A DNA stretch of 64,000 bases from Acidimicrobiales bacterium mtb01 (GTDB lineage: Bacteria > Actinomycetota > Acidimicrobiia > Acidimicrobiales > Ilumatobacteraceae). The stretch covers positions 1-64,000 of the forward strand of contig NBNI01000002.1 in assembly GCA_004379135.1 (NCBI GenBank). Direction: 5' to 3'. Under the pieces are notes generated by a model, which made no database searches, was not told the origin of the DNA, and worked only from the letters and a program-made list of their open reading frames with translations. This document shows positions 33,738 through 61,331 of the stretch, one piece after another. Within the stretch, counting starts at the first letter, position 1. Every line of letters begins with the position of its first letter. A program made the translations under genes and the position numbers.

Positions 33738-34523
33738 TCAGAAGATCGTGTACCCGCCGTCGACCGTGACTTCCTGGCCGGTGTGATACGTCAGAGCCGG
33801 ATCGGCCAGGAACGCTCCGACCTCGCGGAACTCGGCGGACTCGGCCCAGCGACGGACCGGAGTGCGGCGAACCGTCACGTCGCGGAACTTGTCGTTGGCG
33901 TAGGCGGGTCCGGCCATCTCGGTGATCGTCCAGCCCGGGATGAGCGAGTTCACCCGTATTCCGTGCCGCGCGAGACCGACGGCCAGTGCGCGCATGAGTC
34001 CGTTGAGCGCGGTCTTCGACGTTCCGTACGCCTCGTTGCCGGCGGCGCCGTGGATCGCCGATGTCGACGACACCAGAACGAGCGATCCGCCGGTGCCTTG
34101 TTGCACGAGATGCCGTGCGGCTTCGCGAACAGTGATGAACACTCCGTCGAGATTGGTGGCCATGACTTCGCGCCATTGCGCGAGGGTCAGATCGAGGAAC
34201 GGAACGCCGTGGCCCGATCGACCCGCGTTCGCGAAGCATCCGTCGAGACGCCCGAAGTCGGCCACGGTGCGGTTCATCGACTCGATCACCTGTTGTTCGT
34301 CCGACACGTCGCATTCGTATCCACGAGCCGACACGCCGTGACCGCGAAGAACGTCGACGGCTTCGGCGTTGCGATCGGCTCGTCTGCCCCACACCGCGAC
34401 CGAGCCGCCGACCGCGGCGATGCCCTCGGCCATGCCGAGGCCGATTCCCGAGTTGCCGCCGGTCACCACGAACACCTTGCCGGTGAGATCGGTGCGTCCG
34501 CGCGGATTCGAATGGCTTGTCAT
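33738..34523 (-). CDS. Short-chain dehydrogenase/reductase
   Basis: 261 residues from ATG34523. Classical SDR: TGGNSGIGLGMA cofactor loop, NAGRSG, catalytic Ser-Tyr-Lys (VLVSSTSAIHG, YGTSK) and the C-terminal TGQEVTVDGGYTIF. The RRADRN after strand 2 favours NADP. TACGGT lies exactly 6 bp before the ATG (34530-34535), so the mRNA is leaderless; upstream in-frame Mets are therefore rejected. It is divergent from the next SDR gene. Substrate unknown. Confidence 0.9.
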   Translation of the reverse strand: MTSHSNPRGRTDLTGKVFVVTGGNSGIGLGMAEGIAAVGGSVAVWGRRADRNAEAVDVLRGHGVSARGYECDVSDEQQVIESMNRTVADFGRLDGCFANAGRSGHGVPFLDLTLAQWREVMATNLDGVFITVREAARHLVQQGTGGSLVLVSSTSAIHGAAGNEAYGTSKTALNGLMRALAVGLARHGIRVNSLIPGWTITEMAGPAYANDKFRDVTVRRTPVRRWAESAEFREVGAFLADPALTYHTGQEVTVDGGYTIF

Positions 34524-34529
34524 GGGCTC

Positions 34530-34535
34530 ACCGTA
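34530..34535 (-). promoter_or_regulatory. Leaderless -10 element (TACGGT)
   Basis: TACGGT followed by 6 bases and ATG34523 on the minus strand. It belongs to the TANNNT-N6-start series seen throughout the right half. Confidence 0.7.
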
Positions 34536-34606
34536 GAGCATCCACTTGGTCGTGTTCCGAGCCGGATCACTAACCTCGCTTCGTCGCACGATGTGGGGAG
34601 GAACAC

Positions 34607-35407
34607 ATGAAGATCGCCGATTTGTTCTCGGTCCAGGGCAAGGTTGCGCTGGTGACCGGAGGATCACGCGGTATCGGCGAGATGATCGCCGGAGGGTTCC
34701 TCGCCAACGGAGCCAAGGTGTACATCTCGTCGCGCAAGGCCGACGCGTGCAACGAAACAGCCAAGCGGCTGTCCGATACCTTCGGCGGCGAGTGCATCTC
34801 GTTGCCGGCCAATCTCGCCGACCTGTCGGGGATCGAGAGTCTCGTGAAGGGGTTGAGCGAACGCGAGAAGCATCTCGACATCCTCATCAACAATGCCGGC
34901 GTGTCGTGGGGAGCGCCACTCGACGAGTTCCCCGAGGTGGGCTGGGACAAGGTCTTCGACACCAACGTGAAGGGGGTCTTCTTCCTGACGCAGAAGTTGC
35001 TGCCGCTGCTCGAGGCGCGTGCCACCAACGACGATCCGTCCCGCGTCGTGAACATCGGCTCCATCGACGGCATTCGCACGCCGATCTTCGACACCCACTC
35101 GTACGGACCGTCGAAGGCCGCACTGCATTCGTTGACTCGTCAGATGGGTTCGAAGTTGGTGAAGCGCAACATCATCATGAACGCCATCGCACCCGGTCCG
35201 TTCCCCACCTGGATGCTCAGCACCGGTGTGGGTACCGGTGGCGACGTCGACAACACCGATTGGAGCGTGGTCGCACGCGGCAACCCACGCAAGCGAGTCG
35301 GTACCCCCGAGGACATCGCCGGTCTGGCCATCTTCCTGTGCTCGCGCGCGGGCGCCTACACCGTGGGCGAAGTGATCTCCTGCGACGGCGGCACGGTCGT
35401 CAGCTGA
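34607..35407 (+). CDS. Short-chain dehydrogenase/reductase, RhlG-like
   Basis: 266 residues with TGGSRGIGEMIA cofactor loop, NNAGVSWGAP, Ser (NIGSIDGI), YGPSKAALH active-site Tyr-Lys, and AIFLCSRAGAYTVGEVISCDGGTVVS. SSRK after strand 2 indicates NADPH. The overall pattern resembles RhlG/FabG-type 3-ketoacyl reductases. It has a good ribosome binding site (GGGGAGG, 34594-34600) and TAACCT (34571-34576) as -10, so it is one of the leadered genes. It converges on the aldo/keto reductase with no gap. Confidence 0.88.
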   Translation: MKIADLFSVQGKVALVTGGSRGIGEMIAGGFLANGAKVYISSRKADACNETAKRLSDTFGGECISLPANLADLSGIESLVKGLSEREKHLDILINNAGVSWGAPLDEFPEVGWDKVFDTNVKGVFFLTQKLLPLLEARATNDDPSRVVNIGSIDGIRTPIFDTHSYGPSKAALHSLTRQMGSKLVKRNIIMNAIAPGPFPTWMLSTGVGTGGDVDNTDWSVVARGNPRKRVGTPEDIAGLAIFLCSRAGAYTVGEVISCDGGTVVS

Positions 35408-36286
35408 TCAGATCCGCTCGAGGGCGGCGCCGTCGAACAGCGGCGTGAGTCCCTCGTTGGAGATCAGATCGTCGATCTCCGATTTCGTCGGAGCGGCGAT
35501 CGCTCCCCGGGCCGCTTCGAGAACGAACGGAAGGAGCGTCGCGTCGCTCGACGTGTTGAGGAAGAGGTCGTCGTTCGACAGCACGAAGCGCACGGCGATG
35601 GCGATCGACGCCGGATCGGTGATCGGCTCGTACCAACTGCGGTGACCGGCTGGACCGTCGTCCCACCGACGACGGGCGATCGACTTGATGGTCTGCATGG
35701 CGACGCCACGTTCGCGGCAGACGTCGCGAAGCCGCCGCACGTCGCTCTCGTAATCGGGAATCCGGAGCAGGCTCGGATTGAAGGGAAACAGAACCGAGTC
35801 GAAGTCGAATCGTTGGAGGCTGCGCAGGTGCATCGACGGAATGCGCAGTCCGTGTCCGGTCACGCCGATGTGTCGGACCAGTCCTTCGTCGCGGGCCCGG
35901 ATCAGCGCCTCGAGTGCTCCACCCTTCGACACGGCGACGGTCCACTCGTCGTCTTCCACCAAGTTGTGCATCTGGATCAGATCGACCGAGTTGATTCTCA
36001 TGCGCTCGAGCGAGGCCTCGAGCTGGCGACGCGCTCCATCAGCCGTGCGCTTCTCGGTCTTGGTGGCGAGGAAGACCGAGGATCGGTGCTCGCGAAGCCA
36101 CGGGGCGAGTCGGTCCTCCGACGCTCCGTACGATGCGGCGGTGTCGATGTGGTTGACGCCGGCAGCGAGCGCGAGATCGAGAGTCGTGATCGCTCGGGTC
36201 TCGCTCATGCCACCGAGGGCGGCCGCGCCGAAGACGATTCGCGACGACATGTGTCCGGTTCGCCCGAACGGTGCGGTGATCAGCAT
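35408..36286 (-). CDS. Aldo/keto reductase
   Basis: 292 residues, (beta/alpha)8 pattern of the AKR family: VNHIDTAASYGASED (Asp and Tyr of the active site), VFLATKTEKRT (Lys), IQMHNLVED (His). NADPH-dependent reduction of carbonyls is expected. The start is fixed by TACGGT exactly 6 bp before ATG36286 (leaderless). It diverges from the monooxygenase gene; the intergenic 47 bp carry both -10 elements. Confidence 0.88.
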   Translation of the reverse strand: MLITAPFGRTGHMSSRIVFGAAALGGMSETRAITTLDLALAAGVNHIDTAASYGASEDRLAPWLREHRSSVFLATKTEKRTADGARRQLEASLERMRINSVDLIQMHNLVEDDEWTVAVSKGGALEALIRARDEGLVRHIGVTGHGLRIPSMHLRSLQRFDFDSVLFPFNPSLLRIPDYESDVRRLRDVCRERGVAMQTIKSIARRRWDDGPAGHRSWYEPITDPASIAIAVRFVLSNDDLFLNTSSDATLLPFVLEAARGAIAAPTKSEIDDLISNEGLTPLFDGAALERI

Positions 36287-36333
36287 GAGGCGACCGTAGT
36301 TCCTCGCAAGTAAGGTCGGTCGTGGAAGGACGG
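36287..36333. promoter_or_regulatory. Divergent leaderless promoters
   Basis: Minus: TACGGT (36293-36298), 6 bp to ATG36286. Plus: TAAGGT (36311-36316), 5 bp to GTG36322; a ribosome binding site GGAAGG (36324-36329) then precedes ATG36334. The two genes may be co-regulated through this 47-bp space. Confidence 0.65.
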
Positions 36334-37833
36334 ATGATGACCACCAACCATTTCGATGTCCTGATCGTGGGAGCCGGAATCTCCGGAATCGGCTCGGCGT
36401 ATCACCTCAAGACTCTGTGCCCCGACCGATCCTTCGCGATTCTCGAAGGCCGTCCCGACATCGGCGGCACCTGGGACCTGTTCCGCTATCCGGGTGTTCG
36501 CTCCGACAGCGACATGCACACGCTCGGTTACAGCTTCAAGCCGTGGACCGACGCGAAGGCGATCGCCGACGGCCCCTCGATCATGAAGTATCTGCGCGCA
36601 ACCGTGCAGGAATTCGGCATCGCACCGCACATCAAGTTCAACCATCTCGTGTCGCGCGCCGAATGGAGCACCGAATCGGCCACATGGACCCTCACGGCCA
36701 AGCGGGCCGACACCGGCGAGACGGTCATGTACACCTGCAACTTCCTGCACATGTGCTCGGGCTACTACTCGTACAAAGAGGGGTACACACCCGAGTTTCC
36801 GGGGCGCGAGCGCTTTCGAGGCACGATCATCCATCCGCAGAAGTGGCCCGAGAACTTCGACTACTCGGGCAAGCGTGTCGTCGTGGTCGGATCGGGTGCC
36901 ACGGCCATGACCGTGGTCCCGGCGATGGCCGACAAGGCCGCGCACGTGACGATGCTCCAGCGCTCACCCACCTACGTGGTCGCCCGGCCCGATGTCGATC
37001 GCGTCGCCGAGGGCCTGCGCAAGATCTTCCCGGAGAAGGTGGCCTACGCCATCACCCGCAAGAAGAACACCGTGCTGCAGGGATTCTTCTACGGTCGCAC
37101 CCGCACACAACCTGAGAAGGTGAAGGCCACGCTCCTGGCCGGAGTTCGCCAGGCGCTCGGCCCCAATTTCGACGTCGACAAGCACTTCACGCCGTCCTAC
37201 AACCCGTGGGATCAGCGCATGTGCCTGCTCACCAACGGCGACCTCTTCAAGTCGATCAACGCCGGCCGTGCCTCGGTCGTCACCGATCACATCGAGACCT
37301 TCACCGAGAACGGCATCCGACTGAAGTCGGGCGACGAACTCGAAGCCGACGTGATCGTCACCGCCACCGGGCTCAATCTGGTCACGTTGGGCGAGATGAC
37401 GTTCGAAGTCGACGGAGAGGTCGTCGACTTCGCCAAGACCTGGACCTATCGCGGCGTCGCGTACTCCGATGTTCCGAACCTGGTCTCGACGTTTGGATAC
37501 ATCAACGCGTCGTGGACGCTGCGCGCCGATCTGGTGAGCACGTTCGTGTGCCGCTTGCTCAATCACATGCGCGACAACGGCACGGTTCAGGTCACCCCGC
37601 GACTTCGACCGAGTGATCGCGACATGACTCCTCGCCCCTGGATCGAGCAGTTCTCAGCCGGCTACATGCAGCGGACGATGGACCAGATGCCGAAGCAGGG
37701 CGACCGCGAACCGTGGGTCAACCCGCAGTCGTTCAAGATCGAACGCAAGACCATCGGTCGAGGGCGCCTCGACGACGGCGTGCTTCAGTTCACGCGGCAG
37801 CCGGTTCGCGAGTCGGTGTCGGCTGGCGAGTAG
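36334..37833 (+). CDS. Flavin-containing Baeyer-Villiger-type monooxygenase
   Basis: 499 residues. FAD Rossmann motif VLIVGAGISGIG at the start, the BVMO-like GGTWDLFRYPGVRSDSDM segment, the fingerprint region FRGTIIHPQKWPENFDYSGKRVVVVGSGATA with the NADPH Rossmann fold, and IVTATG near the C-terminus. The RYPGVRSDS wording is close to EthA-like monooxygenases of actinobacteria, which oxidise ketones and sulfur compounds. ATG36334 has GGAAGG upstream; GTG36322 would add four residues and match a leaderless transcript. Its 3' end overlaps the convergent hydroxylase by 44 bp. Confidence 0.92.
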   Translation: MMTTNHFDVLIVGAGISGIGSAYHLKTLCPDRSFAILEGRPDIGGTWDLFRYPGVRSDSDMHTLGYSFKPWTDAKAIADGPSIMKYLRATVQEFGIAPHIKFNHLVSRAEWSTESATWTLTAKRADTGETVMYTCNFLHMCSGYYSYKEGYTPEFPGRERFRGTIIHPQKWPENFDYSGKRVVVVGSGATAMTVVPAMADKAAHVTMLQRSPTYVVARPDVDRVAEGLRKIFPEKVAYAITRKKNTVLQGFFYGRTRTQPEKVKATLLAGVRQALGPNFDVDKHFTPSYNPWDQRMCLLTNGDLFKSINAGRASVVTDHIETFTENGIRLKSGDELEADVIVTATGLNLVTLGEMTFEVDGEVVDFAKTWTYRGVAYSDVPNLVSTFGYINASWTLRADLVSTFVCRLLNHMRDNGTVQVTPRLRPSDRDMTPRPWIEQFSAGYMQRTMDQMPKQGDREPWVNPQSFKIERKTIGRGRLDDGVLQFTRQPVRESVSAGE

Positions 37834-38740
37834 CCGGCTGCCAACCGGGTCGCCCGAACACGAACCTGGCTCGATCCGACCAGTTGTCGCTCGACGCCAC
37901 GTCGCGGCCGATGTCCACCATCTCGTGGTACGCGACCTTCACGGGATTGTGGAAGTCGATGTTCTTCGTGAGCCCGTAGCGCACGCGCCGAACCTCTGGT
38001 TCGAACGTCCGGAAGATCTTGTCCCAGACGATGAGGATTCCGCCGTAGTTCCGGTCGATGTATTGCCGGTTGGCTCCGTGGTGGACGCGGTGGTGGGACG
38101 GGGTATTGAACACCTTCTCGATCGGTTCGGGTAGGCGATCGATCGCCTCCGTATGGATCCAGTACTGGTAGAGCAAGTTGAGCTGTGAGGCCTTGGCGGT
38201 GGTCTTGGTCGAGAAGCCGAGGAGCGGCATCGGCCAGTACACCCACGACATCAACCAGAACGACCACGGTTGACGCAGCGCGGTGGAGAGGTTGTAGCGA
38301 CGTCCGGAGTGGTGAGCGATGTGGTTGCCCCAGAACAGGCGAACCTCGTGCATCCAACGGTGGTTCCAGTAGTAGAGGAAGTCCCACAGGATCATGGCTT
38401 TGAGCAATGGGAATCGCCGACCGCCGATGTTCGAGATGCGGCGGGCGAACAAACGGCGATTGATCCGGCCGAGCACTCCCTGCAGCAGAAAACCGATCAC
38501 GATGTTTCCGACGAGCAACCCGAGACTCGATGCGGTGTCCTTCTTCTCGTAACCGAGAGGAACGAGCGGATCGGGCGTGGGCGAACCGTCGTCGACGGGA
38601 ATGGGTGCGTCGATCGCCTCGAGGGGACGGTTCGGCTTCTTCTTCAGCGAGCGATGCTCGGCGATCATGGTGACGGCGAAGATCGGCAGGGTGAGAAGGT
38701 CGATCAGATCGAGTCCGGCGAGCGGCGACTTCTTGGCCAC
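37790..38740 (-). CDS. Sterol desaturase/fatty acid hydroxylase family protein
   Basis: 316 residues from GTG38740. The di-iron His clusters are complete: YYWNHRWMHE, GNHIAHHSG and SHHRVHHGAN, plus hydrophobic helices around 80-105 and 150-185 typical of this membrane superfamily. It would use O2 to hydroxylate or desaturate lipids or sterol-like compounds. TAATCT is 6 bp upstream (38747-38752), overlapping the ABC-F stop codon, so it has its own leaderless promoter despite following that gene closely. Confidence 0.9.
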   Translation of the reverse strand: MAKKSPLAGLDLIDLLTLPIFAVTMIAEHRSLKKKPNRPLEAIDAPIPVDDGSPTPDPLVPLGYEKKDTASSLGLLVGNIVIGFLLQGVLGRINRRLFARRISNIGGRRFPLLKAMILWDFLYYWNHRWMHEVRLFWGNHIAHHSGRRYNLSTALRQPWSFWLMSWVYWPMPLLGFSTKTTAKASQLNLLYQYWIHTEAIDRLPEPIEKVFNTPSHHRVHHGANRQYIDRNYGGILIVWDKIFRTFEPEVRRVRYGLTKNIDFHNPVKVAYHEMVDIGRDVASSDNWSDRARFVFGRPGWQPATRQPTPTREPAAA

Positions 38741-38746: not shown

Positions 38747-38752
38747 AGATTA
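38747..38752 (-). promoter_or_regulatory. Leaderless -10 element (TAATCT)
   Basis: TAATCT, 6 bases, GTG38740 on the minus strand; the element includes the TAA stop of the upstream ABC-F gene. Confidence 0.65.
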
Positions 38753-40375
38753 GGTGAGCGGCTTGGCCAATTTGATCGACGCGGTCGTGTCGGGAGCCGC
38801 CAGCGCCTTCATGGCCACGTCGAAGTCGGGGAGGGCGAACACCTCGCCGGCGTCGGTGATCATGATGAAGCGGTCGAGAGTCTCGAGGAACGTTCGATCG
38901 TGGCTGACGGCCACGACGGTTCCCTCGAAACCGTCGAGGGCGTGTTCGAGCGCTTCGGACGATTCGATGTCGAGGTTGTCGGTCGGTTCGTCGAGCAACA
39001 GGACGTTGTGGCCGTCGAGTTCGAGACACAGGATCTCGAGTCGGGCCTTCTGCCCGCCGGACAGGGTCGGGAACTCCTGCCGCGCGTTGGCGTGCAAGCC
39101 GTAACGGGCGAGCGCGCGCATCGACTTCTCCTCGTCGACGAGACGATCGCGAACGATGTCGAGTGCCGTGCGATCGGCGAATTCAGGGCGATTGTTGACT
39201 TGGGTGAACATTCCGACCGACGTGCGCGGACCGAATCCGACCGTTCCCTCACTGGGCCGATCCTTGCCGGCGAGCACGTCGAGCAAGTGGGTCTTGCCGG
39301 TGCCGTTCGGGCCGATGAGTCCCACGCGTTCACCGTGGTGGATCTCCTCGGAGAACGGGAGGAACAAACCGTCGATGGCCACGTCGTCGAGTTTCGCCAC
39401 GCGTCGAGCCGCGTCGGCACCGCGAAGCCGAACGTGGATCTTCTGATCGGGAACCGGTGGCGGCGGCGGGCCGGCCGCGACGAACTTCTCCCAACGCGTT
39501 TCGGCGGCGTTGGCCTTGGTGGCGTTCTTGAAGTTCTGGGCCGCGCGCTGCTTCATGATCTTCATGTGGTGGAACAACCGGCGCTCCTCGTCGTTCCACC
39601 GCTTGAGTTCGTCGCCCAGTTGCTCCTGGCGCTTGGCGCGAGCCTCGGGGAACGTCGTGTACGAGCCTCCGTGGACCCACGCGCCCGAACCTTCGATCAC
39701 GACGATCTTGTTCGCGACGCGTTCGAGGAGCCGCCGGTCGTGGCTCACCATCAGAATGGTGGACTTGGTTTCGAGGATGCGATCCTCCAGCCAACCGCGC
39801 GTGGGGATGTCGAGGTAGTTGTCGGGCTCGTCGAGGAGCAGAACATCCGAACCCGACGTGAGGAGAAGATCGAGCACCAGCCGCTTGCGTTCACCACCCG
39901 AGAGTTCGGAAACCAATCGGCGGGAGAAGTCGTCGATCTTGGTCTTCACACTGCGGTCGGCCGCGGCGTGCCACTTGGTCTCGAGTTCGTAGCCGCCGAG
40001 GTCGCCCCAGTCGGCCAGCGCTTCGGCGTACTCCATGCCGTCGTCGTTGCCCAGGTTGCGTTCGGCGGCGGCCAAACGCCGACCAGCGTGGCGCAGCTGC
40101 AGCGGGGCGACTTCGATGAGCATGTCGCGCAGCGAATCGGTGGGTCGCGACATTCCGACGTCCTGGGTCATCGACAGCATGTTGCCGAGGACGTTGAACT
40201 CGCCTTCGTCGGCCTCGATCACTCCGGAGAGGATGCGCAGGATGGTGCTCTTGCCGACGCCGTTGGCGCCCACCAGCGCGGCATGTTCGCCCGGAGCCAC
40301 GCCGAACGAGACGTCGAAGAACAGCTGGTCGCCGCCGGGTGGTGCGTACGCGAGTTCGGAGACCGTGATGCTCAC
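38750..40375 (-). CDS. ABC-F family ATPase
   Basis: 541 residues with two soluble ABC domains and no membrane part: Walker A GANGVGKST and GPNGTGKTH, signatures LSGGERKRL and LSGGQKARL, Walker B LLLDEPDNYL and LLLDEPTDNL. A linker of about 80 residues rich in Arg/Lys (FHHMKIMKQRAAQNF) fits the ABC-F P-site tRNA-interaction motif. Members bind the ribosome and rescue stalled or drug-bound complexes. GTG40375 has GAGAAT exactly 6 bp before it. Confidence 0.92.
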   Translation of the reverse strand: MSITVSELAYAPPGGDQLFFDVSFGVAPGEHAALVGANGVGKSTILRILSGVIEADEGEFNVLGNMLSMTQDVGMSRPTDSLRDMLIEVAPLQLRHAGRRLAAAERNLGNDDGMEYAEALADWGDLGGYELETKWHAAADRSVKTKIDDFSRRLVSELSGGERKRLVLDLLLTSGSDVLLLDEPDNYLDIPTRGWLEDRILETKSTILMVSHDRRLLERVANKIVVIEGSGAWVHGGSYTTFPEARAKRQEQLGDELKRWNDEERRLFHHMKIMKQRAAQNFKNATKANAAETRWEKFVAAGPPPPPVPDQKIHVRLRGADAARRVAKLDDVAIDGLFLPFSEEIHHGERVGLIGPNGTGKTHLLDVLAGKDRPSEGTVGFGPRTSVGMFTQVNNRPEFADRTALDIVRDRLVDEEKSMRALARYGLHANARQEFPTLSGGQKARLEILCLELDGHNVLLLDEPTDNLDIESSEALEHALDGFEGTVVAVSHDRTFLETLDRFIMITDAGEVFALPDFDVAMKALAAPDTTASIKLAKPLT

Positions 40376-40381: not shown

Positions 40382-40387
40382 ATTCTC
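40382..40387 (-). promoter_or_regulatory. Leaderless -10 element (GAGAAT)
   Basis: GAGAAT, 6 bases, GTG40375 on the minus strand. Confidence 0.5.
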
Positions 40388-43789: not shown

Positions 43790-43795
43790 CAGAAT
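43790..43795 (+). promoter_or_regulatory. Leaderless -10 element (CAGAAT)
   Basis: CAGAAT, 6 bases, GTG43802. Confidence 0.5.
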
Positions 43796-52639: not shown

Positions 52640-54124
52640 CTACGCCATCTGGCGGTCGAACGAGTGGCTCGGTGTTCCCGTGAGGAGAAGGCGTTCGAAT
52701 TCGAGCGCGGTCGCTTCGTGATGGAAGAGGCGACCTTGCTGGCGCACGCATCCGAGTGCGAGCAACTCCCGACTCTGTTCGGGCCGTTCGACGCAAACAG
52801 CCGAGAGGATGGCGCCGAATTGGTCCGACACACGGCGCGCCGCGTCGAGGTGGAGACGATCGGAGGGTCGGTCGGAACCGACGACTCGACCGTCGATCCG
52901 AACCTCGTCGATCGCGATGGAGTCGAGGACCCGCAGATCGGCGTTCGGAACATCGGCCAGACTCACACGCGCACCTCGCGAACGCAGATCAGCCAAGGAC
53001 TCGGCGGCGGCGCGGAGATCGTCCGTGACCGCCGTCGTGCACAAGTCGATCGTCAACCAGTCGAGCGATGCCGGGCCGAACAACGCGACGATTCGATCGT
53101 CACGCCAGGCTCGCGGGGCGCAGTGCTGGGGAAGGTTGACCCGAAAACGGAATCCGTCGGCGAACGGCGACGACAGGACCACGTCGATCAGGGGAGTGGC
53201 TCCACGCACCGCCGACTCGGTGAGTCGTTCGTACGAGTGGGCGTCGACAACCGACTCGAGGTACTCACCCGCTCCGATGAGCGAACCATCGTCAGCGGTC
53301 CATCGGGCCAGAACCTCGGCTCCGATCAATCGCCGATTCGCGACGTCGAACTCGGGCTGGAAGTACGGAATGGTGCGCGAGTCGGCGATCGCGCGGCGCA
53401 GAAGGGTTTCGCGTCGCACGACGCGATCGTGCTCGAGTTGTTCGCCGGCCGACGTCTTCTCGATACGATCACCGCCGAGCCGCTTCGCTTCGCGCAATGC
53501 CGAATCGGCGAGGGCGAGCACCTCTGCGGGTGATGTCGATGGAGATGCCGACGACGACGTCCAGGGTCCGACGGCGATGCCGACGCTGATCGAGACGCGA
53601 ATCGTCCGTTCTCCCACCGGACACGGCGAGCGCATCGAACCGACGATCGCCCGCGACACGATGTCGGCGCGATCGGCATCGAGCACGACCACGAATTCAT
53701 CGCCGCCGAGTCGCGCCACCGCCATCGTTCCGTCGGTCAGGTTCTCCAGGCGACGCGCGATCTCTCCGATCAGGAGGTCGCCGGCGTCATGTCCGAAGCC
53801 GTCGTTCACGGCCTTGAAGCGATCGACATCGCAGAACAGCACGGCGAGACGAGGGTTCGTGACGAGTCGATGTTCGATGCAGGCGAGGAGGGCGGCGCGA
53901 TTCAGGAGTCCGGTGAGCGGGTCGTGGGTCGCCTGATGTTCCCAGTGCCGCAGGTCGTCGCGCAGCTGCTGCTGGTGATTGAGGGCCGACGACAGCCGGT
54001 GCCGGTGCGCGACGAGGCCCACGGCGAGTCCCGAGGCCGCGGCAACCGATAGCCAGAGCACGGCTGGGTATCGGCCGGCTCCTGGGGAGACTTGAGGAAT
54101 TGTCGGTCCCGGGGGCTCTACCAT
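52640..54124 (-). CDS. Membrane GGDEF protein with degenerate EAL domain
   Basis: 494 residues from ATG54124; GTG54061 is an alternative that leaves more room for the divergent gene. One membrane segment (about 20-42), then HDPLTGLLNRAALLACIEHR and ARLGGDEFVVVLD: an intact GGDEF site, so cyclic-di-GMP synthesis is plausible. The C-terminal half has the EAL layout but with AEVLAR in place of EALVR, and VSLADVPNADLRVL in place of the catalytic DDFGTG loop, so phosphodiesterase activity is unlikely and it may serve as a sensor. No I-site RxxD is evident next to the GGDEF. Confidence 0.88.
   Translation of the reverse strand: MVEPPGPTIPQVSPGAGRYPAVLWLSVAAASGLAVGLVAHRHRLSSALNHQQQLRDDLRHWEHQATHDPLTGLLNRAALLACIEHRLVTNPRLAVLFCDVDRFKAVNDGFGHDAGDLLIGEIARRLENLTDGTMAVARLGGDEFVVVLDADRADIVSRAIVGSMRSPCPVGERTIRVSISVGIAVGPWTSSSASPSTSPAEVLALADSALREAKRLGGDRIEKTSAGEQLEHDRVVRRETLLRRAIADSRTIPYFQPEFDVANRRLIGAEVLARWTADDGSLIGAGEYLESVVDAHSYERLTESAVRGATPLIDVVLSSPFADGFRFRVNLPQHCAPRAWRDDRIVALFGPASLDWLTIDLCTTAVTDDLRAAAESLADLRSRGARVSLADVPNADLRVLDSIAIDEVRIDGRVVGSDRPSDRLHLDAARRVSDQFGAILSAVCVERPEQSRELLALGCVRQQGRLFHHEATALEFERLLLTGTPSHSFDRQMA
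54119..54124 (+). promoter_or_regulatory. Leaderless -10 element (TACCAT)
   Basis: TACCAT, 6 bases, ATG54131. It overlaps the ATG of the divergent GGDEF gene if that starts at 54124. Confidence 0.6.
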
Positions 54125-54130: not shown

Positions 54131-55123
54131 ATGACGAGGCGACTTCGGTCGATCCCGGCTCTCGTGCTGGGGGCGGTTCTGCTCACCGTGCTCGTGCCGG
54201 TGTGGCTCCCGAGTGCCCTGTTGGCCGATCTCCTGCGGGGCCGCCGTCGGCTCCCCACGGTCCGGTTGCTGTCCTTCGCCGTGGCCTGGGCCTGGATCGA
54301 AACCGCCGGTGTCGTCGTGGCCGGGGTTCTGTGGCTCATGGGGCGCGGACGGCACCTTCGTTCTCATTACGGCCTGCAGCGTTGGTGGGCGGCCCGACTG
54401 ATCGGAGCCCTGCGGGTCACCTGCGGAGTGCGCGTGGTCGTGGAGAACCCCGAGGCCCTCCAGCCCGGGCCGACGTTGCTCTTCGCCCGTCACGCCAGCC
54501 TGGCCGATTCGCTGGTGTCGGCCTACGCGATCTCCACCAAGAGCCGGATCAACCCGCGCTACGTGCTCAAGAAGGAACTGCTGGTCGACCCGTGTCTCGA
54601 CATCGTGGGGAATCGGCTGCCCAACCACTTCCTCGACCGCGAGGCCACCGACGCGGCTCCCGAGTTGGCCGCGCTCGAACACCTGGTCGCCGACCTCGGT
54701 TCGGATGGCGTCGGGGTGATCTTCCCCGAGGGCACCCGAGCCAACCCGAAGAAGCGGGCGTCGGCACTGGAGAAGATCGCTTCGATCGATCCCGAACGCG
54801 CCGCACGACTACGGGGCTTGCAGCACCTCCTTCCGCCGCGACCGGCGGGCGCGGCCGCGCTGCTGCGGGGCAACGCCGAGGCCGATGTGGTGCTGGCCTG
54901 GCACGTGGGCTTCGAAGGGTTCGACACCTTCGGCGGGATCCTGCGAGGTGTGGGCGACCCGCCGGCACCGGTCCGATTCGTGATGAAACGGGTCGCACGA
55001 TCCGAGGTTCCGGCGGCGACCGAGGCGAACATGAAGGTGTTCACCGAATGGCTCGATTGGCAATGGCTCGCCCTCGACGCCGAGGTCGGCCGAGCATTGG
55101 ACGAGAGGAGTCACCGTGGGTGA
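54131..55123 (+). CDS. PlsC-like 1-acylglycerol-3-phosphate acyltransferase
   Basis: 330 residues. Two N-terminal membrane segments (about 7-28, 48-68), then the acyltransferase motifs HASLAD (H-x4-D) with RHASLADS and FPEGTR. It should esterify lysophospholipid with an acyl group at the membrane. TACCAT 6 bp before ATG54131 fixes the start. Overlaps the DUF1295 gene by 8 bp, so the two are co-transcribed. Confidence 0.88.
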   Translation: MTRRLRSIPALVLGAVLLTVLVPVWLPSALLADLLRGRRRLPTVRLLSFAVAWAWIETAGVVVAGVLWLMGRGRHLRSHYGLQRWWAARLIGALRVTCGVRVVVENPEALQPGPTLLFARHASLADSLVSAYAISTKSRINPRYVLKKELLVDPCLDIVGNRLPNHFLDREATDAAPELAALEHLVADLGSDGVGVIFPEGTRANPKKRASALEKIASIDPERAARLRGLQHLLPPRPAGAAALLRGNAEADVVLAWHVGFEGFDTFGGILRGVGDPPAPVRFVMKRVARSEVPAATEANMKVFTEWLDWQWLALDAEVGRALDERSHRG

Positions 55124-55926: not shown

Positions 55927-55932
55927 TATGGT
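55927..55932 (+). promoter_or_regulatory. Leaderless -10 element (TATGGT)
   Basis: TATGGT, 6 bases, GTG55939. Confidence 0.7.
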
Positions 55933-55938: not shown

Positions 55939-56586
55939 GTGACTTCGACGACCGCATCTCGCGAGCCGCGGTCGTTCACTTTCCGGTTCGTGTGCCTGCT
56001 CGCCAGCATCGGAGTGGTCGGTGTCGGAATCGCCCTGATGGTGTCGGCCGAACTCGGTGTCGCACCAGCCGATGTGTTGAGTACGGGTGGTGCCGAACGT
56101 CTCGACATCGGCGTCGGCACCATGGGCTGGATCAGCGGTGGCGTGTACACGCTGCTCGCCATCGCGCTGCGTCGTCCGCCGCAATGGGGAACCCTTCTCG
56201 GTGCGGTCCTGGTCGGTGTGGCCGTCAACTTGTCGTTGGAGGCGATTCCCGAACCGGACGAACTCGCCTGGCGCGTTCCGATGATGCTGGTCGGTCTGGC
56301 ACTTCTCTACACCGCGATTTCGGTGGGTGTTTCCACCATGCTCGGCACCGGTCCGATCGAATTGATCATGCTCGGCCTGGCCGATCGCGGCATGAACATG
56401 CAGGCCGCTCGCTGGCTCATCGAAGCGGTGGTGTTCGTGGGCGGAGTGCTCCTCGGCGGTCAGATCGGAATCGGCACCTTGCTGTTCGTGGTGCTCACCG
56501 GCCCGGTGCTCGCGCGTACTTTGCCACCGGTGGCGCGTTTCATGGGAACCACCGTGCTCGACGCTCCGCACGGTCTCGACGCCTGA
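55939..56586 (+). CDS. YczE/YitT-type membrane protein
   Basis: 215 residues from GTG55939, fixed by TATGGT 6 bp upstream; the longer frame starting at 55825 overlaps the previous gene. Five or six hydrophobic segments, with SAELGVAPADVLSTGGAERL and GTGPIELIMLGLADRGMNMQAARWLIE, the repeated half-motif of the YczE family of integral membrane proteins. Family function is not established. Convergent with the CoA-transferase gene. Confidence 0.8.
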   Translation: MTSTTASREPRSFTFRFVCLLASIGVVGVGIALMVSAELGVAPADVLSTGGAERLDIGVGTMGWISGGVYTLLAIALRRPPQWGTLLGAVLVGVAVNLSLEAIPEPDELAWRVPMMLVGLALLYTAISVGVSTMLGTGPIELIMLGLADRGMNMQAARWLIEAVVFVGGVLLGGQIGIGTLLFVVLTGPVLARTLPPVARFMGTTVLDAPHGLDA

Positions 56587-56601: not shown

Positions 56602-57828
56602 TCACTTGGTGCGGGGCAGTCGACTCGAGATGATCGATCGGGATTCGAGATCGTCGAGCCGAGCGGCGTCGAGTCCGAGAACCTCACCGAGCACCGTTCG
56701 GTTGTCTTCGCCGCGATAGCGCGGTTCGCCGCGCACTCCCGTCGTCGCACCGCGAAAGTGCCACGGGGAGTTGGGTACTCGCAACGTTCCCCCGAGCCGA
56801 TCGTCGATGCCGACGACGGCTCCGCGCGCCTCGGCCCATTCGGACTCGGCGAGTTCGCGAACACTGCGCAGAACGCCGACCGCGAGTCCGCTCTTCGAGC
56901 ATTTCTCCTCGAACACCGCCGCGTCGGCCCACGTGGACGCCCACGCCTGCATCTCGGCCAGCAGTTCGGCGAAGTGGGCGCGGCGCGACGGCACGTCGGC
57001 GAAACGCTTATCGGATCCGAGGTCGGATCGGTCCATGGCGGCCGCGATGAGATCGAACGTCCCCCGCTCGGCGGGGTGCCCCGCGATGAGAACCCTCGTT
57101 CCGTCGGCCACCGTCAGGATGGGATAGTCGCCGGGTTGATACGAGCGAATCCAACTCGGATCGATCTCGCCATCGAACAATTGGTCGTGCGCGTGTTCGT
57201 TCACGTACAGCATCGTCTCGGCCATCGACACGTCGATGCGCTCGCCGCGTCCGGTGCGTTCGCGTTGGAACAATGCGGCCAGGATCGCCGACGCGGTTTC
57301 GAGTGCGGTGTACGTGTCGGCGTGCGACCACGGATCGTTCGCGTACTGACCTCCGCGGGCGTCACCCTGCATCTTGGTGAGTCCGCTCTCCACGCCGATC
57401 ACCGGTGCGTAGGCGCGACGATGCACCCAGGGACCATCGGCGCCGTAACCGCTGATCGAGGCGTACACGAGCCGTGGGTTGCGCGCACTGAGGGCGTCGT
57501 ATCCGAGACCCAGACGATCCATGACACCGGCCCGGTAGTTCTCGAGCAACACGTCGCTCCTGTCGACCAGCTGGCGCAGCAAGTCGGCACCCTCGGGCGT
57601 CGCCAGATCGATGCTGATGCAACGCTTCCCGGCGTTCTGCTGGGCGAAGTAGGTGGAGATCGAGCCCACGCGGGGACTGGCGAAACGAGTGAGATCTCCG
57701 TCGGGTGGTTCGACCTTGATGACGTCGGCACCCATGTCGACCAGCATGCGGCCGCAGTGCGGTCCGGCCAGCACGCGCGTGAGGTCGAGGACGCGAATGC
57801 CGTGGAGGGGTCCGGGGGACGAAGTCAC
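56602..57828 (-). CDS. CaiB/BaiF family CoA-transferase
   Basis: 408 residues from GTG57828 (CATCAT 6 bp upstream); the 24 codons before it overlap the divergent promoter region. Class III CoA-transferase features: GIRVLDLTRVLAGPHCGRMLVDMGADVIKVEPP, NAGKRCISIDLATPEGADLL, YRAGVMDRLGLGYDAL, ISGYGADGPW, and the catalytic Asp region in GGQYANDPWSHADTYTALE. It moves CoA between carboxylic acids or acts as a racemase. The divergent neighbour is a cyclase-type hydrolase. Confidence 0.92.
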   Translation of the reverse strand: MTSSPGPLHGIRVLDLTRVLAGPHCGRMLVDMGADVIKVEPPDGDLTRFASPRVGSISTYFAQQNAGKRCISIDLATPEGADLLRQLVDRSDVLLENYRAGVMDRLGLGYDALSARNPRLVYASISGYGADGPWVHRRAYAPVIGVESGLTKMQGDARGGQYANDPWSHADTYTALETASAILAALFQRERTGRGERIDVSMAETMLYVNEHAHDQLFDGEIDPSWIRSYQPGDYPILTVADGTRVLIAGHPAERGTFDLIAAAMDRSDLGSDKRFADVPSRRAHFAELLAEMQAWASTWADAAVFEEKCSKSGLAVGVLRSVRELAESEWAEARGAVVGIDDRLGGTLRVPNSPWHFRGATTGVRGEPRYRGEDNRTVLGEVLGLDAARLDDLESRSIISSRLPRTK

Positions 57829-57887
57829 GACGCCATGATGGTCGGCGTCGGGCGCCGGTTCATCATCGTCGGCACTACGGTCGGGCC
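57829..57887. promoter_or_regulatory. Divergent leaderless promoters
   Basis: Minus: CATCAT (57835-57840), 6 bp to GTG57828. Plus: TACGGT (57876-57881), 6 bp to ATG57888. All 59 intergenic bases are shared by the two genes. Confidence 0.7.
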
Positions 57888-58907
57888 ATGAGCACCTCAC
57901 GATCCGGTCTTCCCGACTACGACGATCTGCCGCGACGTGCAGGGTTGCCGGCGAGTTGGGACGCGTGGGACCGCGCCGACGGTCCGCTGTTCGGCTGCCT
58001 CAATCTCCTGACACCCGAACGCATCGTCGAGGCCGCCCGTCTCGTGCGGGAGGGTCGCGTGTTCGCCCTCAATTGGAGCATGGGCCTTCCCGATCCGCCG
58101 CTGTTCGGTCGGCAGCCGTTCCGCCACGAGGTCACGGGTGGTTCCACCGGCACCAGTCACGACGACGTGCTCCACGGCTGGAACACGCAGTCGAGCAGTC
58201 AATGGGACGGATTCCGACACATCCGAAATCACGCGGCGCTCTCCGACGAATCGCTGCCCGGCACCGGCCACTTCGGCGGTGTCGATGACGACGACCACGG
58301 CATCGACCACTGGGCGAAGCGTGGAATCGCCGGACGCGCGGTACTGGCCGACCTCGGTCGTTGGCGAACGTCCATCGGCCAACCGATCGATTGCTCCGAT
58401 GCCGATCCGATCGAACCGTCGGAGATCCTCGAGTGTCTGGCCGCGCAGGGAACCGAACTCCGTGAAGGCGACGTCCTTCTGCTGCGCTTCCGATGGATCG
58501 AATGGTACGAACGACAGCCGAGCGACGTGAGAGCGCGAATCGCCGAGACGTCGTCGTTGCGCACTCCCGGTCTTCGATCGGGCGAGGAGTTGGCGCGAAC
58601 CCTCTGGAATCTGCACATCGCCGCGGTGGGTTGCGACAATCCGGCCGTCGAGGTGTGGCCACCGGGTTCGGCCACGACACCCGAACACGAAGCCGAGGTT
58701 CGGGCCGATCGCACTCGACTGCACGAGATCTTCACGCACACCCTGTTGTTGCCGATGCTCGGCATTCCGTTGGGCGAGATGTGGAACCTCGACGGTCTCG
58801 CCGAACACTGTGCGCGGGTCGGGCGGTACGAGTGCTTCTTCGTGTCGGCGCCGTTGAATCTTCCGCAGGGAGTGGCCAGCCCACCCAACGCGTTGGCGAT
58901 CGTCTGA
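57888..58907 (+). CDS. Cyclase-family metal hydrolase (KynB-like)
   Basis: 339 residues; PF04199-type cyclase. SSQWDGFRHIRNH carries the conserved DG..H metal site, and GIAGRAVLADLGRW and EGDVLLLRFRWIEW are the usual strands before the second metal site. Such enzymes hydrolyse N-formylkynurenine or related amides/lactones. Start fixed by TACGGT 6 bp upstream. Six bp separate its stop from the convergent M20 gene. Confidence 0.85.
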   Translation: MSTSRSGLPDYDDLPRRAGLPASWDAWDRADGPLFGCLNLLTPERIVEAARLVREGRVFALNWSMGLPDPPLFGRQPFRHEVTGGSTGTSHDDVLHGWNTQSSSQWDGFRHIRNHAALSDESLPGTGHFGGVDDDDHGIDHWAKRGIAGRAVLADLGRWRTSIGQPIDCSDADPIEPSEILECLAAQGTELREGDVLLLRFRWIEWYERQPSDVRARIAETSSLRTPGLRSGEELARTLWNLHIAAVGCDNPAVEVWPPGSATTPEHEAEVRADRTRLHEIFTHTLLLPMLGIPLGEMWNLDGLAEHCARVGRYECFFVSAPLNLPQGVASPPNALAIV

Positions 58908-58913
58908 CTCGGC

Positions 58914-60140
58914 CTACTTGGCGAGGTGATCGATGGCGGCCGCGCTGTAGAGCGCGATACCGGTCGACATCGCATCCTCGTCGTAGAACACGCGATTGGA
59001 GTGGTTGGGTGCGGCGGTCGCCGGATTGCGATCGGAGGGTGTCGCTCCGAGGAACACCATCGCACCCGGAATGCGGTTGAGCACCACACCGAAATCCTCG
59101 GCACCCATGACCGGCGTGGGAAGTTCGATGAAGCGATCGGCACCGGCCACCGTCTTCACCAGGCGCGCGGCGTGCTGCGCATGATCGTTGTCGTTGACCG
59201 TGACGTCATAGCCGATGTTGATGTCGACCTCCACGCTCAGGTCGTGGGCGGAGGCGATTCCTTCGGCCACGCGGCGAATGCCGTCGTGGACCAACTTGCG
59301 GGTGGTCTCGCTGATGGCGCGGATCGTCCCGCCGATCTCGGCATGCTCGGGGATCACGTTGAAGGCAGTTCCGGCTCGCAGACGAGTGACGGTCAGCACC
59401 GACGGGTTGAACACGTTGATGCGGCGCGTGACCATGGCCTGGAGGGCCTGGACGATCTCACAAGCGGCCGGAACAGGGTCGAGTGTGCGGAACGGCTCGC
59501 TGCCGTGGCCGCCCTTGCCGACCACGCGAATCGTGAACGAGTCGCTGGAGGCCATGAGCGGGCCGGCCTTCGTGCTCACGAAGCCGGTGGGCAACGACGA
59601 CGTCGTGTGGATCGCGAAGGCGCGGGTGATGGGTGACTCGCTGCCGTTCGAGCGCGGACCGATCTCGAGCAGCCCTTCGTCGATCATGTGCTGAGCACCG
59701 TGGTGGCCTTCCTCACCCGGCTGGAACATGAAGAGAACTCGCCCGTGCAGGTCGTCGCGCCGTTGCGAGAGCAGCTTGGCCGCACCCACCAACATGGCCA
59801 CGTGCGTGTCGTGGCCACAGGCGTGCATCGCTCCGTCGACGCGCGAGCCGAAGTCGAGACCGGTGTCCTCCGGCATCGGAAGAGCGTCCATGTCACCGCG
59901 CAACAACACCGTTGGCCCGTCATGGGCACCTTCGAGAGTGGCGGCGATTCCTGACGTCGTCTCGTGGAGGGTGAGGCCGAGCGGGAGTCCGTCGAGCGCT
60001 TCGAGAACCTTCTCGCGCGTGATGGGCAGATGGTTTCCGATTTCGGGCCATTGATGAAGGTCGCGTCGTAATGCCACGGCATCACTCTGTTGATCGCGCG
60101 CCTCGTCGGCGAGCGTTGCCAGGATCCCCTCTGCTGCCAT
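58914..60140 (-). CDS. M20-family amidohydrolase
   Basis: 408 residues. Di-metal peptidase/amidohydrolase motifs: LLRGDMDALPM, MHACGHDTHVAMLVG, MFQPGEEGHHGAQHMI with the catalytic Glu pair, then GKGGHGSEPFRTLDPV and GAEDFGVVL. This is the hippurate/indole-acetyl amino acid hydrolase group, which cleaves N-acyl amino acids. TAAGGT exactly 6 bp upstream fixes ATG60140. Divergent from the NUDIX gene. Confidence 0.92.
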   Translation of the reverse strand: MAAEGILATLADEARDQQSDAVALRRDLHQWPEIGNHLPITREKVLEALDGLPLGLTLHETTSGIAATLEGAHDGPTVLLRGDMDALPMPEDTGLDFGSRVDGAMHACGHDTHVAMLVGAAKLLSQRRDDLHGRVLFMFQPGEEGHHGAQHMIDEGLLEIGPRSNGSESPITRAFAIHTTSSLPTGFVSTKAGPLMASSDSFTIRVVGKGGHGSEPFRTLDPVPAACEIVQALQAMVTRRINVFNPSVLTVTRLRAGTAFNVIPEHAEIGGTIRAISETTRKLVHDGIRRVAEGIASAHDLSVEVDINIGYDVTVNDNDHAQHAARLVKTVAGADRFIELPTPVMGAEDFGVVLNRIPGAMVFLGATPSDRNPATAAPNHSNRVFYDEDAMSTGIALYSAAAIDHLAK

Positions 60141-60183
60141 GGACCCACCTTAGACACAACCGAACGACTCCTAGAGTGGCCCG
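60141..60183. promoter_or_regulatory. Divergent leaderless promoters
   Basis: Minus: TAAGGT (60147-60152), 6 bp to ATG60140. Plus: TAGAGT (60172-60177), 6 bp to GTG60184. Only 43 bp lie between the two start codons. Confidence 0.72.
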
Positions 60184-60678
60184 GTGGAGCAGGTGGCCTG
60201 GGTCGACGACGACGATCGGGTCATCGAGATCGTGTCGCGCAAACGCATGCGCTCCGAGCGTCTTCGCCATCGCGCGGTGTTCATCGCCGTCACCGACGGT
60301 ACGGGGCGGTTGTTGGTCCATCGCCGCTCGCCGTCCAAGGATGTCTGGCCGGGTTGGTGCGATGTCGCGGTGGGCGGAGTCGTGGGGGCGCACGAGTCGT
60401 ACGACGAGGCCGCCGTTCGCGAAGTGGCCGAGGAGATCGGTGTTCGCGACGCGGCGGTTGCATCTCTCGACGACGGAATCGCGCGTGCCTTCGACGACGA
60501 CACGGTGTCGTTGTTCGGCCGGTGCTACCAGATCACGAGCCAGGGCCCGTTCACGTTCACCGATGGCGAGATCACCGAGGCGTGGTGGGTGGCTCGGAAT
60601 GATCTGGCCGCGGCCATCGCCCGGGATCGGTTCCTGCCCGACAGCCTTGCGCTGCTGCTGCCGCTGATTCGTTGGTGA
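60184..60678 (+). CDS. NUDIX hydrolase
   Basis: 164 residues from GTG60184. The NUDIX box GGVVGAHESYDEAAVREVAEEIGV is complete (G-x5-E-x7-REVxEExGV). The N-terminal MEQVAWVDDDDRVIEIVSRKRMRSERLRHRAVFIAV is close to the YfcD/isopentenyl-diphosphate-isomerase-like subgroup. Hydrolyses a nucleoside diphosphate linked to X; substrate not readable. TAGAGT is 6 bp upstream. Confidence 0.9.
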   Translation: MEQVAWVDDDDRVIEIVSRKRMRSERLRHRAVFIAVTDGTGRLLVHRRSPSKDVWPGWCDVAVGGVVGAHESYDEAAVREVAEEIGVRDAAVASLDDGIARAFDDDTVSLFGRCYQITSQGPFTFTDGEITEAWWVARNDLAAAIARDRFLPDSLALLLPLIRW

Positions 60679-60798
60679 CCGTCGCCGTTGTCGGGCCGCC
60701 CACGTCCTTCACTCCGAGCCTCTCGAACGAGTGGCCATCAAACCCGCGTCGACCGCGCGAATGATCGTGCGGAAGACACCCGAAAAAGGAGTACATCC

Positions 60799-61077
60799 GT
60801 GACCATCGGTTCTCTCATCGGTGCCGACCCCGACCAACTCGAATCCCTGGGCACCACGCTGTGCCGTCAACGCGAGAGCGTCGATTCGATCGTCAGCCTC
60901 GTGACCAGCACCTTGGCCGGCACCGCCTGGGTCGGTCCGGCCCGCCAGGCCTTCGAGTCCGACTGGGAAAGTTCCTTCCGCTCCGCTCTGTCGCGACTGT
61001 CGGACGCCTTCGACATGGCCGGCCGCGACTGCTCGGCCCGCGCGATCGAACTCCGCCGTGTGATGGGCCGCATGTAG
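60799..61077 (+). CDS. WXG100-superfamily protein
   Basis: 92 residues from GTG60799 (AAGGAG upstream). Helix-turn-helix hairpin with the WxG motif in TAWVGPARQAFESDWE at the centre, the pattern of ESAT-6/WXG100 proteins, secreted by type VII systems as dimers. The C-terminal YxxxD/E export tail is not obvious. No EccC or partner WXG100 gene is seen in the window, so it could be an orphan or substrate of a distant system. Confidence 0.78.
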   Translation: MTIGSLIGADPDQLESLGTTLCRQRESVDSIVSLVTSTLAGTAWVGPARQAFESDWESSFRSALSRLSDAFDMAGRDCSARAIELRRVMGRM

Positions 61078-61082
61078 CCACC

Positions 61083-61088
61083 TACTCT
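61083..61088 (+). promoter_or_regulatory. Leaderless -10 element (TACTCT)
   Basis: TACTCT, 6 bases, ATG61095. Confidence 0.7.
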
Positions 61089-61094
61089 TGGGGC

Positions 61095-61331
61095 ATGCTG
61101 CGCGTCGAGTTCACCGTCGAGCCGTTCGTCGAGGGCAACCCCGGTCGTCACGTGATGGCGGCGGTCGACGCGGTTCGCCACCTCGGCCCGGAAATCGAGT
61201 TCGGTCCATTCGGCTCCGAATTCACGTCGTCCGACGATGTCGTCGCGGCGGCGGTCGCCGCCCTCATCGGTGCGGCCTATTCCAATGGGGCGACGCACGT
61301 GAACGTGCACATCGAGCGAGTCGATCGATGA
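61095..61331 (+). CDS. Thiamine-binding-like (MTH1187/YkoF-type) small protein
   Basis: 78 residues. The repeating beta-alpha-beta pattern RVEFTVEPFVEGNPGRHVMAAVDAV and EIEFGPFGSEFTSS...ATHVNVHIER resembles MTH1187/YkoF proteins that bind thiamine. No transport genes are adjacent. TACTCT exactly 6 bp before ATG61095; its stop overlaps the HTH gene start (ATGA, 61328). Confidence 0.6.
   Translation: MLRVEFTVEPFVEGNPGRHVMAAVDAVRHLGPEIEFGPFGSEFTSSDDVVAAAVAALIGAAYSNGATHVNVHIERVDR

What the first reader, a model, noticed from the sequence alone, without database searches (positions are those of the whole stretch)
34523..61095. Strict leaderless start signal TANNNT-N6-(A/G)TG across the right half
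Exactly 6 bp separate the hexamer from the start at 34523, 36286, 38740, 54131, 55939, 57888, 60140, 60184 and 61095, and with weaker hexamers at 40375, 43802 and 57828. Three divergent gene pairs have such promoters facing each other within 43-59 bp. The rule corrects several start codons and hardly appears at 1-19 kb, marking island versus core.
Basis: seen in the sequence. Interest (0 to 1): 0.6.

Follow-up and report, generated by a model that had tools for sequence, protein, structure and literature searches.

The report
Leaderless gene starts in freshwater actinobacteria
Many genes of this uncultivated actinobacterium appear to start their messenger RNA at or within a base or two of the start codon, driven by a six-base promoter that evolution has almost erased from the inside of genes; the mechanism is known in general, but here it sometimes seems to serve two back-to-back genes at once.

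Summary
In detail: nine TANNNT-N6-(A/G)TG sites and three weaker ones lie where stated. The peak is not special to the right half: in 19 other 20-kb stretches of this genome distances 6 and 7 have 57 and 31 hits against a mean of 5.3. This is the known TANNNT leaderless promoter of Actinomycetota, in an uncultivated Acidimicrobiia lineage. Supporting signs: C at -1 in 55 of 62, no clear -35, exclusion of Shine-Dalgarno, exact N6 in 13 of 13 and 7 of 7 orthologue loci read for two window genes. The island-versus-core reading is not supported.

Two further results. TANNNT is purged from coding DNA: 623 against 5,809 expected by synonymous shuffling, and still five-fold low in the two genomes tested when dinucleotides are kept; that is why the rule looks strict. 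And some divergent genes appear to share one TA (ANNNTANNNT), with 22-25 bp between start codons (6 of 53 facing pairs; full core kept in 10 of 10 and 9 of 13 genus loci read at two junctions). None lies in the window. No RNA evidence was available.

The parts
34530..34535 (-). -10 hexamer TACGGT, 6 bp before ATG at 34523 (short-chain dehydrogenase, 33738-34523)
   Evidence: Pfam; TANNNT-N6-ATG in 7 of 7 loci read (one is the window's own)
36293..36298 (-). -10 hexamer TACGGT, 6 bp before ATG at 36286 (aldo/keto reductase, 35408-36286)
38747..38752 (-). -10 hexamer TAATCT, 6 bp before GTG at 38740 (fatty acid hydroxylase family, 37790-38740)
   Evidence: orthologue loci were withheld
40382..40387 (-). 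weak hexamer GAGAAT, 6 bp before GTG at 40375 (ABC transporter ATPase, 38750-40375)
   Evidence: lacks T at -12
43790..43795 (+). weak hexamer CAGAAT, 6 bp before GTG at 43802 (TetR-type regulator)
   Evidence: lacks T at -12
54119..54124 (+). -10 hexamer TACCAT, 6 bp before ATG at 54131 (acyltransferase, 54131-55123)
55927..55932 (+). -10 hexamer TATGGT, 6 bp before GTG at 55939 (no Pfam match, 55939-56586)
57835..57840 (-). weak hexamer CATCAT, 6 bp before GTG at 57828 (CoA-transferase family III)
   Evidence: CATCAT-N6-start also in L027, L021 and L030; not seen in the 45 bases shown for the 5 other loci
57876..57881 (+). -10 hexamer TACGGT, 6 bp before ATG at 57888 (cyclase family)
   Evidence: in L027 (N6) and L025 (N7, start two codons in), the only two loci with a homologue
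60147..60152 (-). -10 hexamer TAAGGT, 6 bp before ATG at 60140 (M20 peptidase, 58914-60140)
   Evidence: TANNNT-N6-ATG in 13 of 13 genus loci aligned (one is the window's own); among the more distant loci, N6 in 5 of 8 besides L027, N5 in 1, none seen in 2
60172..60177 (+). -10 hexamer TAGAGT, 6 bp before GTG at 60184 (NUDIX hydrolase); faces the 60140 hexamer across 19 bp
   Evidence: of 4 loci read kept in L027 only, and also in L226
61083..61088 (+). -10 hexamer TACTCT, 6 bp before ATG at 61095 (78-aa protein, no Pfam match)
   Evidence: of 8 orthologue loci 3 have N6 and 1 has N7 at the aligned start, 4 have none
36311..36316 (+). TAAGGT 5 bp before GTG at 36322, facing the 36293-36298 hexamer; an ATG with an AAGGA a few bases downstream is an alternative start

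Best explanation
The motif is the -10 element of the housekeeping sigma factor, placed so that the first base of the start codon is the transcription start. RNA polymerase recognises T(-12), A(-11) and T(-7) with little help from a -35 element, starts on the A or G of ATG/GTG, and the ribosome begins on the bare 5' end without a leader or Shine-Dalgarno sequence. Shown by computation: the distance peak, the C before the start purine, the lack of a clear -35, exclusion of SD, conservation of the exact spacing at two genes, and a strong purge of TANNNT from coding DNA on both strands. Inferred: the identity of the sigma factor, the transcription start position and the mode of translation.
For: Distance peak at 6-7 bp in window and genome sample and in G112, G031 and G090 of the same family. 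94 of 397 called genes carry it at 6 or 7, 53 of 142 where the upstream neighbour is divergent. -1 is C in 55 of 62 N6 sites against 50 of 83 SD-led starts, p 1e-4. SD and TA exclude each other. Exact N6 in 13 of 13 loci aligned at 60140 and 7 of 7 read at 34523; in three of the latter the start codon has moved nine codons inwards together with a hexamer. TANNNT in pooled coding DNA 623 against 5,809 expected, with TANNT and TANNNNT at 0.85 and 0.78, and extended TGNTANNNT at 6 against 384. With boundary dinucleotides preserved TANNNT is 0.22 (G000) and 0.19 (G112), with TANNNA, TANNT, TANNNNT and ATNNNT at 0.99-1.07. Known biology agrees: Zheng 2011, Cortes 2013, Shell 2015 (passages).
Against: No RNA or protein data. 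Genes were called by my own composition-based caller. The whole-genome count with ATG is only 201 against 109 for the reversed pattern, a control that is not distance-matched. At 61095 4 of 8 orthologue loci, and at 60184 3 of 4, lack the motif at the aligned start. A weak -35 cannot be excluded: 17 of 62 N6 sites match TTGACA at 4 or more of 6 bases against 11.5 in shuffled sequence, without a preferred spacing. Distances 7 and 8 are also raised, so some transcripts may carry a leader of one or two bases. In short samples of more distant genomes the peak is weak or missing (G016 0 and 2, G077 1 and 0, G063 0 and 0, G084 0 and 1 at distances 6 and 7).
Confidence: 0.93

Rival explanations
1. 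The motif is an ordinary -10 box, but a short leader exists and translation uses another signal; the 6-bp distance is only the lower limit of leader length.
For: Distances 7 and 8 also exceed background (31 and 12); in G031 distance 7 is the highest (66 against 47 at 6) and distance 8 has 39, in G112 distance 9 has 23. At one junction the orthologous plus gene has a leader with an SD-like sequence in 6 of 13 loci, so leader length can change.
Against: Distances 0-5 are at or below background and 6 rises at once. SD is rare beside the motif.
Confidence: 0.05
2. The strict rule marks a horizontally acquired island with its own promoter code, distinct from the core at 1-19 kb.
For: No N6 site at 1-19 kb. 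The left part has weak codon scores, an IS110 transposase at 21.2-22.4 kb, and 14 of the 20 ORFs given to searches have no Pfam match (some of these overlap each other and may not be genes).
Against: The same peak occurs in the pooled sample of the chromosome and in related genomes. The shortage on the left is not significant and lies in the range of other stretches. If either part is foreign it is more likely the left one, without the signal.
Confidence: 0.02
3. The palindromic or facing copies are operators of a transcription factor, not promoters.
For: ACGGTACCGT in the FolB junction is a perfect palindrome, identical in 9 of 10 loci.
Against: It stands exactly 6 bp from the ATG in 10 of 10 loci and 7 or 8 bp from the opposite GTG; the core of the second junction (AGGGTAGTGT or AGAGTAGTGT) is not a palindrome. 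Most TANNNT sites at starts are single.
Confidence: 0.15

Closest known systems
TA-led leaderless genes of Actinobacteria and Deinococcus-Thermus (Zheng 2011, PMC3160421; Cortes 2013, PMC3898074; Shell 2015, PMC4633059; PMC12340547)
   Same: TANNNT, first T about 12 bp before the start codon, no -35 consensus, ATG or GTG starts; 18.9% of genes in S. coelicolor and nearly a third in D. radiodurans in the passages seen, 94 of 397 called genes here
   Different: Here in an uncultivated Acidimicrobiia lineage, by sequence only. The middle triplet is G+C rich, which mostly follows the background of TANNNT in the genome.
Depletion of TANNNT in Mycobacterium tuberculosis codon pairs (PMC10653884) and selection against spurious -10 motifs across bacteria (PMC1939733)
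   Same: The -10 hexamer is under-represented in coding DNA, in all frames
   Different: Fold size measured here: 0.07-0.15 of the synonymous expectation in four genomes, about 0.2 with dinucleotides kept in two, both strands; 0.80 in 40 kb of E. coli CDS by the free shuffle. The passages read gave no comparable fold.
Bidirectional promoters (Warman 2021, not held; PMC12825309 and PMC10268837, passages)
   Same: Two divergent starts from one symmetric -10; the overlap seen here would give 23 bp between transcription starts, one of the three common spacings named for E. coli (10, 18, 23)
   Different: Here both predicted starts are at or within two bases of the start codons of two protein genes; the overlap for 18 bp, the commonest in E. 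coli, is absent among the 53 facing pairs.

Membership tests
TA-led leaderless genes | TANNNT core peaking about 12 bp (first T) before the start codon, above background | tested here: met
TA-led leaderless genes | No Shine-Dalgarno sequence at the same start | tested here: met
   4 of 94 TA genes also have an SD-like sequence, against 83 of 303 genes without TA
TA-led leaderless genes | Start codon ATG or GTG | tested here: inconclusive
   The search admitted only ATG and GTG for TA sites, so the split (41 ATG, 21 GTG at N6) does not test TTG exclusion
TA-led leaderless genes | mRNA 5' end at the start codon | not testable with these tools
   needs RNA; the C at -1 (55 of 62) is only consistent with it
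Bidirectional promoters sharing a -10 | -10 elements of both directions overlap with a fixed spacing | tested here: met
   Not for any pair inside the window. In the family sample 6 of 53 facing pairs share the TA; full core in 10 of 10 (FolB) and 9 of 13 (phosphatase) loci read
Bidirectional promoters sharing a -10 | Transcription in both directions | not testable with these tools
   needs RNA or reporters

The most novel reading that the evidence does not exclude
In this family some divergent protein genes are both leaderless (or nearly so) and both driven by a single shared -10 (ANNNTANNNT). The whole promoter, both transcription starts and both translation starts then lie within about 30 bp, so that polymerase binding for one gene must exclude the other. 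Facing pairs lie at hexamer gaps of -7 to 5 or of 16 and more; none of 53 lies at 6-15. When one gene gains a leader with an SD, its half of the shared element can decay while the other half is kept.
Probability: 0.55. Interest if true: 0.62.

Novelty: new member of a known kind. Interest (0 to 1): 0.45.

Why it matters
In a lineage known mostly from metagenomes, TANNNT alone goes far towards mapping promoters: of 398 copies in 464 kb of this genome, 111 sit 6-7 bp before an open start. That helps start-codon calls from sequence alone. The size of the purge suggests that in this family the hexamer is close to sufficient for transcription. The shared-element junctions offer a very small natural system for studying polymerase competition.

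Tried and rejected
Island marker: rejected. A clear -35 element: not found, though a slight excess over shuffled sequence remains (17 of 62 against 11.5). G+C-rich middle triplet as a special code: mostly background; signal hexamers have more G at position 3 and more C and less T at position 5. Helical phasing of facing promoters: the first 32 pairs suggested clusters of gaps at 30-31 and 44-45; with 53 pairs the range 16-50 is filled fairly evenly, so dropped. A first dinucleotide-preserving shuffle mixed too little and gave 0.56; it was replaced by a better mixed one, 0.22 (one shuffle per genome, genes joined in tens). E. coli gene calling failed (no CDS) and was redone from annotated coordinates.

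Rows dropped: G144 (codon model gave no sites); G016 (no CDS); L125, L126, L131 and L132 (short contigs, fetched but not used). Not read: L238 (a weak hit), L252 (partial, at a contig end), L260-L266 (35-38% identical, taken as paralogues). One strong hit (G156) came without a locus. Groups other than G000 and G112 have small expected counts (2 to 301); one of them, G077, showed no depletion (3 against 2), and G120 and G063 had 0 copies against 4 and 11.

The shared-TA class gets two bases for free, so I tested it conditionally: 5 of 11 distinct junctions with the right geometry have the needed A, against 18 of 282 TA sites without an opposite gene (p 6e-4), or p 0.03 against a 17% composition rate. 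Only 2 of the 6 shared-TA pairs have N6 on both sides; the others have 7 or 8 on at least one side. Orthologues within a clade are not independent events. An earlier count said 13 of 13 for the phosphatase core; one search corrects this to 9 of 13 for the full core and 13 of 13 for the minus half.
Full report
What is there. Counting TANNNT-Nk-(A/G)TG on both strands for k 0-30, the window has 12 hits at k=6, 5 at k=7 and a mean of 1.75 outside 5-7; at 34-64 kb k=6 has 10 against 0.82. Of facing pairs, two lie within 43-59 bp; three more combinations with N5, two of them with an imperfect hexamer, lie at 28-35 bp.

Where it comes from. The window is the first 64 kb of contig 4 (228 kb) of a 2.56-Mb, 7-contig assembly. 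The named contigs that best match the 60140 gene are largely Acidimicrobiales and other actinomycetote MAGs; the closest, 95% identical, is labelled only Actinomycetota bacterium K_Offshore_40m, and one at 63% is labelled Ilumatobacteraceae. I take the source to be an uncultivated Acidimicrobiia, probably Ilumatobacteraceae, probably of fresh water; this placement is inference. G112 has the length I recall for Ilumatobacter coccineus YM16-304; that name is recall, from no call.

Genome-wide test. With an open frame of at least 60 codons, k=6 has 57, k=7 has 31, k=8 has 12, against a mean of 5.3 outside k 4-8 (L020 left out). Using my own gene caller on window and 20 stretches, 397 genes show 62 hits at k=6 and 32 at k=7, with other distances 0 to 9. 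The signal concentrates where a promoter is expected: 53 of 142 genes with a divergent neighbour, 11 of 125 genes less than 20 bp behind a co-directional one. In the whole genome the ATG form occurs 201 times against 109 for the reversed pattern. Across 149 genomes of the phylum this ratio varies widely and is near or below 1 in many; in the family it exceeds 1 in 6 of 7 genomes including this one, G144 being the exception. Related genomes repeat the peak, G031 with its maximum at k=7. In short samples of G016, G063, G077 and G084 it is weak or missing.

Signs of function. At the N6 sites the base before the start codon is C in 55 of 62 against 50 of 83 at SD-led starts, fitting a pyrimidine-purine initiator. 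No clear -35 element stands out: 17 of 62 sites match TTGACA at 4 or more bases, against 11.5 in shuffled sequence, with no preferred spacing. SD and TA exclude each other (4 both, 90 TA only, 83 SD only, 220 neither). At the 60140 gene 13 of the 14 loci returned from 16 genomes were aligned (the fourteenth is a weak hit); all 13, one of them the window's own, have TANNNT and exactly six bases, though the hexamer itself varies. At the 34523 gene all 7 loci read have it (one is the window's own); in three of these the start codon lies nine codons further in, by ungapped extrapolation, and a hexamer lies six bases before it. Seven more loci of that search were 35-38% identical, taken as paralogues, and not read. 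Against this, at 61095 only 4 of 8 orthologue loci and at 60184 only 1 of 4 keep the motif at the aligned start, though L226 also keeps the 60184 hexamer. The weak hexamer at 57828 is kept in L027, L021 and L030.

Why the rule looks so strict. TANNNT is nearly absent from coding DNA. In 1.68 Mb of coding sequence from four genomes of the family, counting both strands, 623 copies remain against 5,809 after shuffling synonymous codons within genes. Changing one of the three fixed bases gives 0.52 to 1.14; changing the spacing gives 0.78-0.85; the extended form TGNTANNNT has 6 against 384. A at the third or fifth position is purged hardest (0.03, 0.04), as expected if stronger -10 elements do more harm. 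When codon-boundary dinucleotides are kept as well, TANNNT stands at 0.22 (139 against 646, G000) and 0.19 (109 against 584, G112), while TANNNA, TANNT, TANNNNT and ATNNNT stand at 0.99-1.07, TNANNT at 0.90-0.96, and TANNNC and TANNNG at 1.03-1.14. The free shuffle gives 0.80 in 40 kb of annotated E. coli coding DNA. On small counts it gives 0.54 in pooled proteobacterial loci, 0.08-0.37 in three other actinomycetote groups, 0.11-0.24 in five samples of the same class, and no depletion in G077 (3 against 2). Depletion of TANNNT is known in M. tuberculosis (PMC10653884, passages), and selection against spurious -10 motifs across bacteria (PMC1939733, section 5 and passages); the fold size here is my measurement.

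Island or core. The right half is not special: the same peak runs through the sampled chromosome. The left 19 kb has no N6 site and one N7 site where 4.4 are expected (p 0.07); the 19 sampled stretches range from 0 to 9. The left part is the odd one in other ways: weak codon scores, an IS110-family transposase, a sigma-70-like protein and a Fic protein, and 14 of 20 ORFs tested without Pfam match.

Facing promoters. In 2.3 Mb of the family I found 53 facing pairs of TANNNT-N6..8 sites with coding sequence on both sides. Six have hexamers that overlap by exactly two bases, so that one TA serves both (ANNNTANNNT), with 22-25 bp between the start codons; five more lie at gaps -7 to 5; none lies at 6-15; the other 42 start at 16, the window's own 60140/60184 pair being 19. 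Such an overlap puts transcription starts 23 bp apart if each lies 7 bp after its hexamer; 23 bp is one of the three common spacings of E. coli bidirectional promoters (PMC12825309, passage). Two of these junctions of this genome were followed in its genus. Between a FolB-HPPK fusion and an M20-type peptidase, 10 loci were read: the core ACGGTACCGT is identical in 9 and differs at one middle base in the tenth, while the spacers on both sides vary, and it stays 6 bp from the ATG in all 10. Between an inositol monophosphatase-family gene and a gene without Pfam match, 13 of 14 loci were read: the minus hexamer is kept in 13 and the plus hexamer in 9; the 4 that lost it are among the 6 in which the plus gene has a leader with an SD-like sequence. 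Each set includes the query's own locus, and related loci are not independent events. The attempt to extend this to the family returned no letters.

Known or new. The leaderless signal itself is known: Zheng 2011 describes TANNNT about 12 bp before the start in bacteria including Actinobacteria (passages); Cortes 2013 the same element and no -35 in M. tuberculosis, and also closely juxtaposed divergent promoters with a divergent pair both leaderless (passages); Shell 2015 that ATG or GTG at the 5' end is necessary and sufficient in mycobacteria (passages); PMC12340547 a -10 motif about 6-7 bp upstream in Deinococcus (passages). For 'leaderless' with 'Acidimicrobiia' one paper was listed, which I did not open. 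For bidirectional promoters of two leaderless genes, the listings (20 of 59 shown; 15 of 21; 3 of 3; 5 of 5) showed nothing that states it, judged by titles and starts of abstracts; Warman 2021 is not held.

Noticed in passing
window 1-20000: Long overlapping ORFs with weak codon scores and few Pfam matches beside an ABC/FtsX transporter, a sigma-70-like protein and a Fic protein, with an IS110 transposase at 21207-22376; the contig end may be a mobile or fast-changing region.
   Followed up: partly
window 22796-26527: A 1,243-aa ORF with no Pfam match, preceded by a TANNNT-N7 start; function not examined.
   Followed up: no
L244, L247, L248, L250, L251 (junction of the phosphatase gene): The plus gene has a TATCCT hexamer 24-25 bases before its ATG with AAAGGA between: an apparent switch from leaderless to leadered expression within one genus.
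   Followed up: partly
pooled coding DNA of G000, G112, G031, G090: TANNNA is also halved under the free synonymous shuffle (0.52), but is normal (1.02-1.07) when dinucleotides are kept, in the two genomes tested; so it reflects general avoidance of TA.
   Followed up: yes
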